A stretch of 64,000 nucleotides of DNA from Oscillospiraceae bacterium (GTDB lineage: Bacteria > Bacillota > Clostridia > UMGS1810), in assembly GCA_015069095.1 (NCBI GenBank), contig SVJH01000007.1:1-64000 (forward strand). The letters are read 5' to 3'. Positions within the stretch are counted from its first letter, which is position 1; the number at the start of each line of letters is the position of its first letter. The position numbers and the translations under genes are program-made. Below the pieces are notes generated by a model that worked only from the letters and a program-made list of their open reading frames with translations, searched no databases and was not told the origin of the DNA. Shown here piece after piece: positions 411 to 25,718 of the stretch.

Positions 411-502
411 TGGCGGAGATGGAGAGATTCGAACTCTCGCGCCGCTTTCGCGACCTATACCCTTAGCAGGGGCACCTCTTCGACCGACTTGAGTACATCT
501 CC
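411..502 (-). tRNA. tRNA-Ser(GCU)
   Basis: The minus strand reads as a class II tRNA with acceptor GGAGATG/CATCTCC, anticodon loop CTGCTAA (anticodon GCU), a long variable arm, the T-loop motif TTCGAAT and an encoded CCA at 411-413. It is the last gene of a three-tRNA transcription unit and runs straight into its terminator. Confidence 0.95.
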
Positions 503-528
503 GTAGGCAGAATATAAAAAATATTAAG

Positions 529-615
529 TGGCGGAGAGGCAGAGATTCGAACTCTGGGTGCTTTCGCATCACTAGTTTTCAAGACTAGCTCCTTAAACCA
601 CTCGGACACCTCTCC
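529..615 (-). tRNA. tRNA-Ser(UGA), copy 2
   Basis: The acceptor stem is GGAGAGG/CCTCTCC. The anticodon stem-loop is CTAGT-CTTGAAA-ACTAG, giving anticodon UGA. The tRNA has a long variable arm typical of serine tRNAs, a T-loop TTCGAAT and an encoded CCA. It differs from the copy at 665-751 by one D-loop base (T instead of A). Confidence 0.95.
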
Positions 616-664
616 GTGTATTTGATTGTAGCATAAACAAAGATTATTGTCAATAAAACAAAAG

Positions 665-751
665 TGGCGGAGAGGCAGAGATTCGAACTCTGGGTGCTTT
701 CGCATCACTAGTTTTCAAGACTAGCTCCTTAAACCTCTCGGACACCTCTCC
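665..751 (-). tRNA. tRNA-Ser(UGA), copy 1
   Basis: First gene of the tRNA-Ser cluster. It has the same acceptor, anticodon UGA and encoded CCA as the copy at 529-615. The single D-loop difference (GAGAGG against GAGTGG) lies outside the stems, so both copies should fold normally. A recent duplication explains the pair. Confidence 0.95.
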
Positions 752-21083: not shown

Positions 21084-21112
21084 TTGATTTTTTTAAAGTA
21101 AAGTATTATAAT
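21084..21112 (+). promoter_or_regulatory. Sigma-A promoter of the cobalamin-riboswitch operon
   Basis: TTGATT (21084-21089), 17 bp, TATAAT (21107-21112). Transcription would start near 21119, just before the riboswitch. Confidence 0.8.
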
Positions 21113-21124
21113 ATGTGTATCACA

Positions 21125-21320
21125 CAAAGTGTCGGTTATATTGTAATGATATAACAGGTGAAAAGGGAATGAGGTGCGAATCCTCTGCGGTTAACAGTCG
21201 CTGTATGTACCGAAGTTTTAATGCTTGTCGGTGAAAGCCGGTCATTGGGAAACTGAGAAGGCAAAGTATTAAAATGCAAGAATTTCTTATATGGTATAAG
21301 TCAGAAGACCTGCTTTGATG
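21125..21320 (+). ncRNA. Cobalamin (adenosylcobalamin-class) riboswitch
   Basis: Conserved elements occur in the right order: GGTGAAAAGGGAATGAGGTG near 21159-21178, CGAATCCTCTGCGGT, the CGCTGTAT junction, GTCATTGGGAAACTGAGAAGGC near 21241-21262, and the B12 box AGTCAGAAGACCTGC at 21299-21313. Such riboswitches turn off B12 synthesis or uptake genes when the vitamin is abundant. It controls the two-gene operon at 21542-24630 and has hairpins downstream that can serve as expression platform. Limits are approximate. Confidence 0.95.
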
Positions 21321-21364
21321 CTATTTCGCAAGTGCATATGCATAGGAATAGTAGTATCACATGG

Positions 21365-21394
21365 CATCAAAATATATTTTTGATGTTTTGTTTG
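21365..21394 (+). terminator. Candidate switchable terminator below the riboswitch
   Basis: CATCAAAA-TATAT-TTTTGATG is followed by TTTTGTTTG. Its 5' arm can instead pair with TTTGATGC at 21314-21321, right after the B12 box, which gives two exclusive structures. Confidence 0.45.
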
Positions 21395-21428
21395 CTATGT
21401 AGATTTGTGATAATCACAGAAAAACTCT

Positions 21429-21462
21429 GCTGTGGTAATTTTAAAATTACCGCAGCTTTTTT
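21429..21462 (+). terminator. Strong terminator between riboswitch and operon
   Basis: GCTGTGGTAATTTT pairs with AAAATTACCGCAGC (one G-U) and is followed by six T residues. It stands about 80 bp before the first start codon, as expected for a riboswitch-controlled transcription stop. Confidence 0.85.
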
Positions 21463-21541
21463 ATTGCTTCGGTATTTTGGAAAGGAGAAGATATTACACA
21501 AATCTTAAATACAACAAAAAATACACAAAGGAGTAATAAAA

Positions 21542-23959
21542 ATGAAATTAAAAAAAGTATTATCAGTAGTTTTAAGTATTTTTATAATACTTACAAGTAT
21601 GTATGTACCGACATTTGCACAAGGAAATGAAGTTTTACCGCAAGTACAGATTCTTCATAATATCGCAGAAAAATACTCTGAAACAGGCGTATTAAATGAC
21701 GGCAATATGCATTGGTTTATAGCGGATTTTGCATCTTACAATCAGTTGTATCCTGAAAGTACAAAAAAACTTTCAGACAGTGAAAAACAAAAGTGCGTTG
21801 ACAAAATTATTGAAGAAGTTTCTGTGTCAAATGACGTAATTTATATTTCAAAATCAATAATTGCCCTTCGCGCTCTTGGTTATGATGCAAAAGATTTAAC
21901 AACGAGCGGATTTGAGAAAATTGACGCAGTAAAAAAAATTACCGATCTTATTGATGCACAAAGCAGCTCACTTGACAACGTGTATACACTTCCTTGGGTA
22001 ATTGTAGCACTTTGGCAGAGCGATGATTATGCAAATTCAATTCAGTTAAATTATGTAATAAATAAAGCGATTGAATTAAAAAGTCAGTGGCAAAATACAG
22101 ATTGGGGAACAGACGCTGCGACATTTATGATTTTTGCACTTTCTCCATATTATAACACAAACGATATAGTAAAAAATGCTGTAAATGAAACAATTCCGAT
22201 TATAAATGATTTTCAGGGTGATGACGGGCTTATTTGCACAAGTTTTTTTGGCGAGCTTACTCCAAGTGCTGAGTCGACAGGCCTTGCAATTGCAGCATAC
22301 TCCTCAATTGGAATTGATTCTTCGCTTGTTAAAAAAGAAAATGGAAAAAATCTTATAGAAGGACTTATAAGTAAGGCAACAGATAGTTTTGACTCTTTTA
22401 ATCCAACAACAAATTCGTTTGCTACCGAGCAGGGATTTAGAGGTCTTATTGCATACGAATTATATAAAAATAATCCGGGAAAAAGATTATACGATTTTTC
22501 TGCAAATTCATTAAATCCTGCTGCAGCCACATGGGCAGAGTATTGTCCGGTTGAGTTTAATGTAACACCTGATAGCGCGACTGTTACAATAGAAGGATAT
22601 GATGAAGTTTCACATAATAAATACGATTTGCCATCAGGCACATATTCTTATACAGTTTCAAAAAACAATTACCAAACAAAAAGCGGAACATTTGAAATAA
22701 GCGAAGAAGAACAAACAAATCACATAAAAAAACAAATTGACGTTACATTAAATAAAAAATCTTCTTCAGACAGCAGAATAAAAGTAAATTTAAAAGTAAT
22801 GGTACATAATGAAGATGAATGTAATAACTTATATACATATAAAAGAAACAGTGATGATTACGAGGCTATTGTAAACGAAACAGTGCGTGTAAATAAAGGC
22901 GAAAATGTACTTGATATATTACTTGAAATTTTAGACGATAATAACATTGATTACGAAGAAAACGATGGTTATGTTTCGTCAATAGATAACGTAAGCGCAT
23001 TTGACCACGGATTAAATTCCGGCTGGATGTTTACAGTAAACGGATTTCATAAAAATACACCTGCTTCAGAGACTGTTTTAAGAGCAAATTCAAATATCGT
23101 ATGGTTTTACACTGACAATTACATGTCAGAGCAGGGAGGTGAAGGTTTTACAGGAGGAATAGTTGAAACAACAAAATTTAAAGTAAGTTTTGTATCATTT
23201 ACTGATAATGATCCATTACCTTGCACAGTTGAAAGAAGTGATACTGTTAAAGAGCCTGAAACACCTATAAAAGAAGGATATATTTTTGAAGGCTGGTATA
23301 AGGATGAAAAATTTAACGAAAAATATGATTTTAATTTAGGAGTTAAATCAGATTTAACACTTTATGCAAAATGGACTAAAGAAATCATATCGCCGTTTAC
23401 AGATACAGTTGGACATAAAAATGAAGATGCAATAAAAAATTTGCATCATGATGGCATAATAAGCGGAAAATCAGAAACAGTCTTTGATCCTGATGGGTTT
23501 ATGACAAGGGCAGAATTTGCGACAATTATAGTTAAAGCACTTTCAATTGATACAGATAAAACATCACAATTTGATGACGTTTTACCTTCCGATTGGTATT
23601 ATAACTACATAAATATAGCATCATACTACTCAATTATAAAAGGCGTTGGTAATAATAAGTTTAATCCAAACGGTCTTATAACGCGTGGTCAAGCGATTAC
23701 AATGATAGAAAGAGCAGCCCGTCTTTACGGACTTAACACAAAATTAGACGATGCATATTCTCAGATAATTCTTGCTCAGTTTACGGATTATAAAGATATT
23801 CCGGACTGGTCATATAATGCTTTTGCTTACTGCATAGATTCAAAAATTCTGTCTGATGAATTGATTGAATTAAAACCTTTCGAATGTGTAACAAGAGCAG
23901 AAATTGCACAAATTGTATATAATCTTGTAAATCAGGCAAAATCAATAAAGGTGAGATAA
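21542..23959 (+). CDS. Intrinsic-factor-like, SLH-anchored putative cobalamin-binding protein
   Basis: 805 residues. In order: signal peptide 1-26; alpha/alpha-toroid of the prenyltransferase/squalene-cyclase-repeat type (about 30-330, with TDAATFMIFALSPYY, STGLAIAAYSSIGID and FATEQGFRGLIAYELY); PEGA-like beta domain (336-404); DUF4430/transcobalamin-C-like domain (about 412-527, including ENVLDILLEILDDNN and GLNSGWMFTVNGFHKN); InlB-type B repeat (545-612, EGYIFEGWYKDEKF); three SLH repeats (616-800). Intrinsic factor and transcobalamin bind B12 between an alpha-toroid and a DUF4430-like beta domain. No cyclase acid motif is visible. The riboswitch supports B12 capture at the cell wall. Binding itself is inferred. 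Confidence 0.85.
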   Translation: MKLKKVLSVVLSIFIILTSMYVPTFAQGNEVLPQVQILHNIAEKYSETGVLNDGNMHWFIADFASYNQLYPESTKKLSDSEKQKCVDKIIEEVSVSNDVIYISKSIIALRALGYDAKDLTTSGFEKIDAVKKITDLIDAQSSSLDNVYTLPWVIVALWQSDDYANSIQLNYVINKAIELKSQWQNTDWGTDAATFMIFALSPYYNTNDIVKNAVNETIPIINDFQGDDGLICTSFFGELTPSAESTGLAIAAYSSIGIDSSLVKKENGKNLIEGLISKATDSFDSFNPTTNSFATEQGFRGLIAYELYKNNPGKRLYDFSANSLNPAAATWAEYCPVEFNVTPDSATVTIEGYDEVSHNKYDLPSGTYSYTVSKNNYQTKSGTFEISEEEQTNHIKKQIDVTLNKKSSSDSRIKVNLKVMVHNEDECNNLYTYKRNSDDYEAIVNETVRVNKGENVLDILLEILDDNNIDYEENDGYVSSIDNVSAFDHGLNSGWMFTVNGFHKNTPASETVLRANSNIVWFYTDNYMSEQGGEGFTGGIVETTKFKVSFVSFTDNDPLPCTVERSDTVKEPETPIKEGYIFEGWYKDEKFNEKYDFNLGVKSDLTLYAKWTKEIISPFTDTVGHKNEDAIKNLHHDGIISGKSETVFDPDGFMTRAEFATIIVKALSIDTDKTSQFDDVLPSDWYYNYINIASYYSIIKGVGNNKFNPNGLITRGQAITMIERAARLYGLNTKLDDAYSQIILAQFTDYKDIPDWSYNAFAYCIDSKILSDELIELKPFECVTRAEIAQIVYNLVNQAKSIKVR

Positions 23960-24630
23960 TGAAAAAACATTTAAAAAAAATATTAGGTTTTTTATTTGTT
24001 GCACTTGTACTTGTATTTGCGTATTTTTCACAGCCTGATGTTTCAAATGACAAAAGTGTAAAAGTAAATGAAGTTATAAGTTATAACGAAAATGAAAAAG
24101 GCATAACAACTGATGAAACTACAACTGAAAATATTTTGGAAAATACAGATAATGTACAAACTCAAAAAGAAACAGAAAAACCTAATGATGAAATTGAAGA
24201 AGAGATAAAAAAAGAACCTGAAGTTACATATGACGAAGACCTAAAATGTTCTGTTGTTGTAAGATGTGATACAATACTTAAAAAGCCTGAACTTTTGAAA
24301 GAAGAAAAAAGAGAGTTTGTTCCAAAAGACGGTATAATATACAGTGCCCAAAATGTTATCTTTTATGATGGGGAAAGTGCTTTTAATGTTTTATCAAGAG
24401 AAATGAAAAGAAATAAAATACATTTTGAGTTTAACATTACACCTGTATATAACACGGCATATATTGAAGGAATAGCAAATATATATGAATTTGATTGCGG
24501 AGAACTTTCGGGATGGTTGTATAAAGTAAACAATGTATTTCCCGGCGTTGGCTCATCGCAGTATATATTGAAAAATAATGATAAAATAGAATTTATATAT
24601 ACTTGTGATATGGGAAATGACATAAAATAG
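23959..24630 (+). CDS. Membrane-anchored DUF4430 (transcobalamin-C-like) protein
   Basis: 223 residues: an uncleaved signal-anchor or signal peptide (about 8-23), an acidic Thr/Glu/Lys-rich linker (24-95) and one DUF4430 domain (about 96-220: DGESAFNVLSREMKRN, then CGELSGWLYKVNNVFPGVGSSQYIL and DKIEFIYTCD). Its ATG shares one base with the stop of the upstream gene (TAATG), so translation is coupled. It probably sits nearer to the membrane than the SLH protein and may pass cobalamin on to an importer. No ABC importer is in the window. Confidence 0.8.
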   Translation: MKKHLKKILGFLFVALVLVFAYFSQPDVSNDKSVKVNEVISYNENEKGITTDETTTENILENTDNVQTQKETEKPNDEIEEEIKKEPEVTYDEDLKCSVVVRCDTILKKPELLKEEKREFVPKDGIIYSAQNVIFYDGESAFNVLSREMKRNKIHFEFNITPVYNTAYIEGIANIYEFDCGELSGWLYKVNNVFPGVGSSQYILKNNDKIEFIYTCDMGNDIK

Positions 24631-24658
24631 AAAAACCTGCCTTTTGGCAGGTTTTTTT
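24631..24658. terminator. Bidirectional terminator
   Basis: AAAACCTGCC-TTTT-GGCAGGTTTT between the convergent DUF4430 and C39-like peptidase genes. Confidence 0.85.
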
Positions 24659-25718
24659 AATATGTATCTATTGCTTCTAAAAATACAAAATCAGAAATTG
24701 AAAATCCCATTTTTGCAGGATATGTTTCTTCAAACTCAATATATTCATATGGATTTTCTGTTTCGTATTGTCCGTAATTGTACGGAACAGGATCGTTAAA
24801 ATAAATTGTATCATCTTCATATGCAACAGCAACTATTGTATGAGGTTTACCTTCAAAACGCACCATAACGCCTTCGGGGTGTTTATCAAGCGCCTCTTTT
24901 ATAGCAGCAATTGCAACAGTGTCGTCTTTTTCTTCATTTTCAATATACGTTGCATATCCGTCTTTAAATTCTTTAAAATACAAAGAATCACTATCTATTG
25001 CCTTTCCAAATTTTACTCCGAATTTTTCGACAATAGGGTAGTGGTAGCAAAATGCACCATCGCCACACATTTCTTCATTGACAGCTGCTACATCGTTTGG
25101 GGTAACATCGCCAACAATATCATTTAATATCATAGCATAACACATTACCCAACAGTACGAAGAACCGCAATTTGGAAGTTGCCATTGTTCATCATTTTGA
25201 AAATAAAATGTATGATTTTTTTCTATCTCTTTATCATCATTTTTATCTGATATAATCTGAGATTTTTTGCTTACATAGTCATCACTGTCATCAGTTGTAA
25301 GTTCAACACGTTTTTTCTTTTCATTCCATTTTACCTGTGCATCAAATATTTCTGCAATCGAGCGAAGCGGAATGTAAGTTGAACCGTCAACAATCATAGG
25401 CGGAACATCCATTTTTTTATCTGTCATTCCACTATCTGTCATTGTTATAACATAGGGACTATCAATTCTTAAAACAACATCTTTTTTATTTGATGAAAGG
25501 GTAATTGTTTTACTTGTATCATCCCAGTTTAAATCGTAATCAAACAGTTGGGTAAACGACCTTAAATGAATCATTGTTCGTCCATCAACTATAATAGGTT
25601 CATTTTTGAAGTATACTTTATCACCATTTAAAGTTACTGAAATATTGCCTTCTGCATTTGCACCAAAAGGACTCATAATAAGTATGGCACAAAGCAATAG
25701 TGAACATATTTTTCTCAT
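24657..25718 (-). CDS. Secreted C39-like cysteine peptidase with stalk (copper-amine-oxidase N-like) domain
   Basis: 353 residues: signal peptide (1-22), a copper-amine-oxidase N-terminal-like stalk domain (about 25-142, two PIIVDGRTMIHLRSF / PMIVDGSTYIPLRSI modules), a short charged linker, then a papain-like C39_2 domain (about 168-350). Likely catalytic residues are C189 in SSYCWVMCYAMIL, H293 in KPHTIVAVAY and D309 in YFNDP. The stalk module is common in secreted clostridial proteins and is thought to hold the partner domain near the wall. The substrate is unknown. The gene is single and convergent with the cobalamin-binding operon. Confidence 0.82.
   Translation of the reverse strand: MRKICSLLLCAILIMSPFGANAEGNISVTLNGDKVYFKNEPIIVDGRTMIHLRSFTQLFDYDLNWDDTSKTITLSSNKKDVVLRIDSPYVITMTDSGMTDKKMDVPPMIVDGSTYIPLRSIAEIFDAQVKWNEKKKRVELTTDDSDDYVSKKSQIISDKNDDKEIEKNHTFYFQNDEQWQLPNCGSSYCWVMCYAMILNDIVGDVTPNDVAAVNEEMCGDGAFCYHYPIVEKFGVKFGKAIDSDSLYFKEFKDGYATYIENEEKDDTVAIAAIKEALDKHPEGVMVRFEGKPHTIVAVAYEDDTIYFNDPVPYNYGQYETENPYEYIEFEETYPAKMGFSISDFVFLEAIDTY

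What the first reader, a model, noticed from the sequence alone, without database searches (positions are those of the whole stretch)
21084..24630. B12-riboswitch operon encoding an S-layer-anchored intrinsic-factor-like protein
Seen: promoter, cobalamin riboswitch with a clear B12 box, a strong terminator, then an 805-residue secreted protein with an alpha-toroid, DUF4430 domain and three SLH repeats, coupled to a second DUF4430 protein. Known: intrinsic factor and transcobalamin hold cobalamin between an alpha6/alpha6 toroid and a C-terminal beta domain related to DUF4430. Inferred: this is a Gram-positive, wall-attached vitamin B12 capture protein, analogous in role to the surface cobalamin binders of Bacteroides but with the animal carrier fold. 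A wall-anchored version with PEGA and InlB spacers seems little described.
Basis: partly seen in the sequence, partly recalled or inferred. Interest (0 to 1): 0.88.

Follow-up and report, generated by a model that had tools for sequence, protein, structure and literature searches.

The report
Bacterial intrinsic-factor-like vitamin B12 catcher
A gut-type Clostridia bacterium carries a vitamin-B12-switched two-gene operon whose S-layer-anchored protein is a true relative of the animal B12 carriers intrinsic factor and transcobalamin, and its relatives sit next to a B12-type membrane importer, so it is very probably the outer catcher of a B12 uptake line; the general idea was predicted in 2007 but seems never to have been tested.

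Summary
A cobalamin riboswitch (RF00174, 54.9 bits; the only one in the genome) and an intrinsic terminator precede an 805-aa secreted protein (alpha/alpha-toroid, PEGA-like domain, DUF4430, InlB-type repeat, SLH repeats) and a membrane-anchored 223-aa DUF4430 protein. Toroid relatives match Pfam 'Eukaryotic cobalamin-binding protein' (8 of 17, best 2.6e-14). The AlphaFold2 model (pLDDT 91.9) retrieves transcobalamin, intrinsic factor and haptocorrin as its top 15 PDB hits, although face-to-face packing of toroid and DUF4430 is not established. The riboswitch link is general: 5 of 5 close orthologs, 29 of 40 sampled Clostridia genomes (0.5 expected by chance), 19 of 28 further loci. Relatives usually continue into EcfT-EcfAA'-EcfS, whose S component resembles the proven B12 transporter CbrT (6FNP, E=1e-9). 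The family lacks CbiC but this genome has MetH: a probable B12 auxotroph. The core idea was published by Burroughs et al. 2007. New here: riboswitch control, SLH anchoring, CbrT-like partner, both-domain structural match, and conserved cysteines confined to the second DUF4430 protein. No B12 binding has been shown.

The parts
21084..21112 (+). promoter-like -35/-10 (TTGATT-17-TATAAT)
   Evidence: consensus match only, not above chance in the region
21110..21331 (+). cobalamin riboswitch aptamer RF00174; B12 box at 21237-21255
   Evidence: (54.9 bits, E=6.7e-11); sole copy in the genome
21429..21456 (+). intrinsic terminator of the expression platform, stem GCTGTGGTAATT/AATTACCGCAGC plus T6; nearly the same stem recurs in relatives' leaders
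   Evidence: terminator in 18 of 26 leaders
21542..23959 (+). ORF1, 805 aa secreted S-layer-anchored toroid/DUF4430 protein
21629..22513 (+). alpha/alpha-toroid, residues 30-324, intrinsic-factor type
   Evidence: A1/A2/A3 alignments, PF01122 in 8 of 17 aligned members, AF2 model and Foldseek
22541..22762 (+). PEGA-like beta domain, about residues 334-407
   Evidence: weak in this protein, significant in 2 homologs, beta domain in model
22769..23146 (+). DUF4430 (transcobalamin-C type beta-grasp), residues 410-535, with FDHG histidine before SGW
   Evidence: (1.7e-14)
23180..23371 (+). InlB/List-Bact repeat spacer, residues 547-610
   Evidence: 1.3e-16; InlB 2y5p 3e-6
23393..23941 (+). SLH region, residues 618-800, wall anchor
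   Evidence: S-layer protein Sap SLH 1e-11
23959..24630 (+). ORF2, 223 aa: N-terminal hydrophobic anchor, acidic linker, DUF4430 with conserved cysteines
24631..24656 (.). bidirectional terminator-like palindrome ending the unit
   Evidence: scored on the - strand; on + the same stem ends in a T run

Best explanation
This is the extracellular part of a vitamin-B12 (cobamide) import line. Shown: a cobalamin riboswitch with terminator heads a two-gene unit; ORF1 is secreted, carries SLH repeats, and contains a toroid and a transcobalamin-type beta-grasp domain homologous to those of intrinsic factor/transcobalamin; ORF2 is a membrane-anchored second beta-grasp protein; relatives continue into an ECF importer with a CbrT-like S component. 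Inferred: when cell B12 is low the riboswitch lets transcription pass the terminator; ORF1 sits in the S-layer and clamps cobamide between toroid and beta-grasp domain as the animal carriers do; ORF2, on a flexible arm at the membrane, takes the cobamide over and presents it to the CbrT-like ECF importer (encoded elsewhere in this genome, at a contig edge); the B12 serves MetH. High B12 shuts the unit off.
For: Riboswitch, sole copy; terminator, conserved stem in relatives. Close orthologs 5/5 with riboswitch; 29/40 Clostridia genomes with a same-strand riboswitch within 10 kb upstream against 0.47 expected; 19/28 further loci. In the family, 15 riboswitches in 14 genomes: those that can be read lie before this system, one of them directly before EcfT-EcfAA'S. 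PF01122 'Eukaryotic cobalamin-binding' in 8/17 members, best 2.6e-14. AF2 pLDDT 91.9; top 15 PDB hits all B12 carriers, repeated with a homolog. ECF genes directly downstream in many loci; S component hits ECF-CbrT 6FNP, E=1.1e-9, a proven B12 transporter (PMC5997447). S-component homolog in the own genome. No CbiC in 16 family genomes; MetH and its activation domain identified by reading L082.
Against: No binding or transport data. The predicted domains are not shown to close on each other. The own genome's EcfS copy is cut by a contig start and carries a one-base frameshift near its C-terminus, so the importer may be incomplete or misassembled here. 11 of 40 genomes show no riboswitch upstream within 10 kb. 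Ligand could be cobinamide or another cobamide rather than B12 itself.
Confidence: 0.82

Rival explanations
1. The proteins capture a corrin precursor or degraded corrinoid (cobinamide) or cobamides in general, rather than vitamin B12 as such.
For: CbrT, the nearest characterised importer, also takes cobinamide (PMC5997447). Herbivore-gut MAG origin of relatives, where mixed corrinoids are expected (own knowledge).
Against: The riboswitch class and intrinsic-factor-type toroid point to complete cobalamin-like ligands, but do not exclude precursors. Salvage enzymes (CobS/CobT/CobU) were not searched.
Confidence: 0.3
2. Split-carrier variant: the working clamp forms between the toroid of ORF1 and the DUF4430 of ORF2 (in trans), and the DUF4430 inside ORF1 is a spacer or second site.
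For: Several relatives have toroid proteins without fused beta-grasp beside a separate DUF4430 gene and ECF genes (L127, L134, L137, L142, L144). The stand-alone DUF4430 is far more conserved than the fused one.
Against: The window protein and many relatives keep a fused beta-grasp domain, in either domain order; the 2007 analysis favours cooperation in cis.
Confidence: 0.25
3. The toroid is an enzyme (terpene cyclase, prenyltransferase or glycoside hydrolase type) at the cell wall and DUF4430 a binding module; the riboswitch only reflects operon membership.
For: Toroid profile also hits squalene-hopene cyclase (1e-4) and Pfam Prenyltrans/SQHop; Foldseek lists GH88/GH105 lower down.
Against: No DxDD or DDxxD motif in any of 10 toroids; Cobalamin_bind matches more members and far better (2.6e-14); top structural hits are all B12 carriers over both domains.
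Confidence: 0.04
4. Cobalt or other metal capture: DUF4430 as metal-binding domain, EcfT as CbiQ-like cobalt permease.
For: EcfT gives a weak CbiQ match; a DUF4430-like structure, 3u7z, is labelled putative metal-binding; conserved cysteines in ORF2.
Against: S component resembles CbrT (B12), not a cobalt S component; no CbiC in the family, so cobalt for de novo synthesis is pointless; toroid of intrinsic-factor type.
Confidence: 0.04

Closest known systems
Animal cobalamin carriers: intrinsic factor, transcobalamin, haptocorrin (PF01122 plus PF14478)
   Same: alpha/alpha-toroid followed by transcobalamin-C beta-grasp domain in the same order; homologs significant to PF01122; best PDB hits over both domains
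   Different: bacterial, SLH-anchored to the wall, PEGA-like domain inserted between toroid and beta-grasp, InlB-type spacer, about 10-17 % identity in the structural alignments, riboswitch-controlled, paired with a second beta-grasp protein
Bacterial SLBB (transcobalamin-like clade) proteins of Burroughs, Balaji, Iyer and Aravind 2007 (PMC1796856)
   Same: toroid-SLBB fusions in low-GC Gram-positives in both orders, second paralogous SLBB gene in the operon, CbiO/CbiQ-like transporter, hosts lacking B12 synthesis, proposed B12 scavenging and source of the animal carriers
   Different: that paper does not mention riboswitches or S-layer domains (0 occurrences) and predates the CbrT structure; the window system is an SLH-anchored, riboswitch-controlled member
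ECF-CbrT vitamin B12 transporter (6FNP, PMC5997447)
   Same: S component of the linked ECF module in relatives is homologous (E=1.1e-9)
   Different: dedicated fused EcfAA'-S and EcfT, accompanied by surface proteins; L. delbrueckii CbrT shares one ECF module among eight predicted S components
Bacteroides BtuG/BtuH surface B12 binders (PMC6143338, PMC8941943)
   Same: surface capture of B12 ahead of an importer
   Different: surface-exposed lipoproteins of an outer-membrane organism with unrelated folds (own knowledge); here wall anchoring by SLH and intrinsic-factor fold

Membership tests
Cobalamin riboswitch RF00174 | covariance-model score above gathering, full-length aptamer with B12 box | tested here: met
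   54.9 bits against 31.5, model 1-189; B12 box
Cobalamin riboswitch RF00174 | binds cobalamin and switches the terminator | not testable with these tools
   terminator present and its stem conserved in relatives; ligand response untested
Intrinsic factor/transcobalamin family | toroid homologous to PF01122 | tested here: met
   8 of 17 aligned members significant, best 2.6e-14; the window's own toroid gives no Pfam hit but is 40-52 % identical to its close relatives
Intrinsic factor/transcobalamin family | C-terminal transcobalamin-type beta-grasp domain (PF14478) | tested here: met
   Foldseek match to transcobalamin beta domain 5no0, TMt 0.68
Intrinsic factor/transcobalamin family | the two domains face each other and sandwich cobalamin | tested here: inconclusive
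   pTM 0.68-0.69, rmsd 12-15 A over both domains; linker disordered in the homolog model
Intrinsic factor/transcobalamin family | binds cobalamin with high affinity | not testable with these tools
   needs purified protein
SLBB transcobalamin-like operons (Burroughs 2007) | toroid-SLBB fusion, second SLBB gene, CbiO/CbiQ-like transporter in the operon | tested here: met
   first two in the window; transporter adjacent in many relatives but unlinked in this genome
SLBB transcobalamin-like operons (Burroughs 2007) | host lacks B12 synthesis | tested here: met
   no CbiC in 16 of 16 family genomes, control genomes positive; one marker gene only
S-layer-anchored proteins | SLH repeats at a terminus of a secreted protein | tested here: met
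   SLH 4e-28, C-terminal; whether the host has the matching wall polymer is not tested
ECF-CbrT transporters | S component homologous to CbrT | tested here: met
   6FNP 1.1e-9 for the L039 S component; own-genome copy 62 % identical to it but truncated and frameshifted

The most novel reading that the evidence does not exclude
A two-station corrinoid relay: the S-layer protein clamps B12 with an intrinsic-factor-type site whose beta-grasp domain offers a histidine (FDHG), and the membrane-anchored partner re-binds it through a cysteine at the same position (FDCG) among four conserved cysteines found only in the partner, changing the cobalt ligand (compare BtuM's thiolate ligation, PMC6072759) and so driving one-way hand-over to the CbrT-like importer.
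Probability: 0.1. Interest if true: 0.8.

Novelty: new variant of a known kind. Interest (0 to 1): 0.58.

Why it matters
It gives strong genomic evidence (regulation by B12, conserved importer, fold match over both domains) for a 2007 prediction that the animal B12 carriers come from Gram-positive surface proteins, for which I found no experimental test in the open-access library searched. It also suggests how many gut Clostridia without B12 synthesis compete for the vitamin: toroid relatives occur in 119 of 391 sampled genomes of the class, and the named close relatives are largely herbivore-gut MAGs. The short, soluble constructs make the intrinsic-factor origin and the hand-over mechanism directly testable.

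Tried and rejected
A single-sequence search of named genomes found no relatives; the alignment query found 39. Enzyme reading of the toroid rejected (no DxDD/DDxxD). Cobalt-capture reading disfavoured. Searches for papers on SLH plus cobalamin riboswitch or on DUF4430 function gave nothing specific beyond Burroughs 2007. The order holds only this one family, so the survey moved to the class. Interdomain geometry could not be resolved after two AF2 jobs. The promoter at 21084 is a consensus match no better than chance in the region.
Full report
What is there. The window holds a compact transcription unit at 21084-24656. A full-length cobalamin riboswitch (21110-21331, 54.9 bits, E=6.7e-11) with a recognisable B12 box (21237-21255) is followed by an intrinsic terminator (21429-21456) and then by two overlapping genes. 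It is the only RF00174 match in the 2.06-Mb genome. ORF1 (21542-23959, 805 aa) has a signal peptide, a helical region, a weak PEGA-like stretch, DUF4430, an InlB-type repeat and SLH repeats. ORF2 (23959-24630, 223 aa) has an N-terminal hydrophobic segment, an acidic linker and a second DUF4430.

Is the helical part an intrinsic-factor toroid? The window's own toroid gives no Pfam hit, but it aligns over its full length with toroids at 40-52 % identity, and 8 of 17 aligned members match Pfam PF01122, 'Eukaryotic cobalamin-binding protein', best E=2.6e-14, more members than match squalene cyclase or prenyltransferase. The AlphaFold2 model of residues 26-535 has mean pLDDT 91.9. Its fifteen best PDB matches are all transcobalamin, intrinsic factor or haptocorrin, with alignments running through both domains; a homolog without the PEGA insert gives the same list. 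Matches of single domains are good (intrinsic factor toroid 2pmv_B TMt 0.60, transcobalamin beta domain 5no0 TMt 0.68). The packing of the two domains is not settled: pTM is 0.68-0.69, rmsd over both is 12-15 A, and the linker of the second model is disordered. I therefore claim homology of both domains, not a demonstrated pocket.

Is the riboswitch link general? Yes. All five close orthologs have it. In the family, 14 of 16 genomes hold 15 RF00174 sites; the ones that can be read lie before toroid/beta-grasp/SLH or beta-grasp/SLH operons, and in one genome a second one lies directly before EcfT-EcfAA'S; one site (G006) ends at a contig edge and cannot be assigned. Among 391 genomes of the class, 119 have a toroid match. 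In 40 of these with strong matches, chosen for spread over families before any riboswitch was looked for in them, 29 have a same-strand riboswitch within 10 kb upstream of a toroid gene; about 0.5 would be expected by chance given the riboswitch numbers of those genomes. A terminator with nearly the same stem (GCTGTGGTAATT...AATTACCGCAGC) recurs in many leaders (a terminator of some kind in 18 of 26), so the usual switch-off by B12 is the likely logic (inference).

What is it wired to? In many relatives the order is riboswitch, toroid/beta-grasp/SLH protein, stand-alone DUF4430 protein, EcfT, EcfAA', EcfS; L128 has exactly the window's ORF1 architecture followed by the whole set. The S component resembles CbrT of the proven B12 importer ECF-CbrT (6FNP, 1.1e-9; PMC5997447). 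In the own genome an S-component homolog lies at the start of contig C46, cut by the contig end and with a one-base frameshift near its C-terminus, so presence of a working importer is likely but not proven. CbiC is absent from all 16 family genomes. A B12-binding domain protein at C19 reads as MetH beside its activation-domain protein. This is the picture of a B12 auxotroph that must import the cofactor.

Mechanism proposed. ORF1, held in the wall by SLH repeats, captures cobamide with its toroid and beta-grasp domain; ORF2, tethered to the membrane by an acidic arm, takes it over; the CbrT-like ECF importer moves it in; the riboswitch closes the unit when B12 is plentiful. Capture and hand-over are inferred. 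Two details bear on hand-over. First, some relatives have no fused beta-grasp on the toroid protein (L127, L134, L137, L142, L144), so toroid and beta-grasp may clamp in trans. Second, the stand-alone DUF4430 carries four conserved cysteines (all four in 34 of 39), none of which occurs in 28 fused copies; at the turn before the invariant SGW the stand-alone form has Cys (35/39) where the fused form mostly has His (18/28; window FDHG). These may be disulfides or cobalt ligands; untested.

What was known. Burroughs et al. 2007 (PMC1796856; [quoted passage not shown] It does not mention riboswitches or S-layer domains. Searches of the open-access library found no later experimental work on these proteins, though subscription papers are not covered. 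I therefore file this as a new variant of a known, predicted kind: SLH-anchored, riboswitch-controlled, with a CbrT-like importer.

Noticed in passing
window 23959-24630 and 38 further stand-alone DUF4430 proteins: Four conserved cysteines (all four in 34 of 39) absent from all 28 toroid-fused DUF4430 domains; Cys versus His at the same turn before SGW.
   Followed up: partly
G000:C37:25786-25995 (locus L040): Third DUF4430 of the genome in a 145-aa predicted lipoprotein with no riboswitch and no ECF genes nearby.
   Followed up: partly
G000:C46:1-830 (locus L081): Own CbrT-like S component begins at the contig start and has a one-base frameshift near its C-terminus; genuine decay or assembly error cannot be told.
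   Followed up: partly
L130:947-4096: One protein with two toroids around a DUF4430 (Toroid-DUF4430-Toroid-SLH) behind a cobalamin riboswitch.
   Followed up: no
PDB 3u7z: Solved Ruminococcus gnavus protein labelled 'putative metal binding' is a structural match to the DUF4430 domain; its label may need revisiting.
   Followed up: no
window 24657-25718 (- strand): Convergent secreted protein with copper-amine-oxidase N-terminal-like domain and C39-like peptidase domain.
   Followed up: no
window 414-751 (- strand): Three tRNA genes in a row, two of them nearly identical.
   Followed up: no
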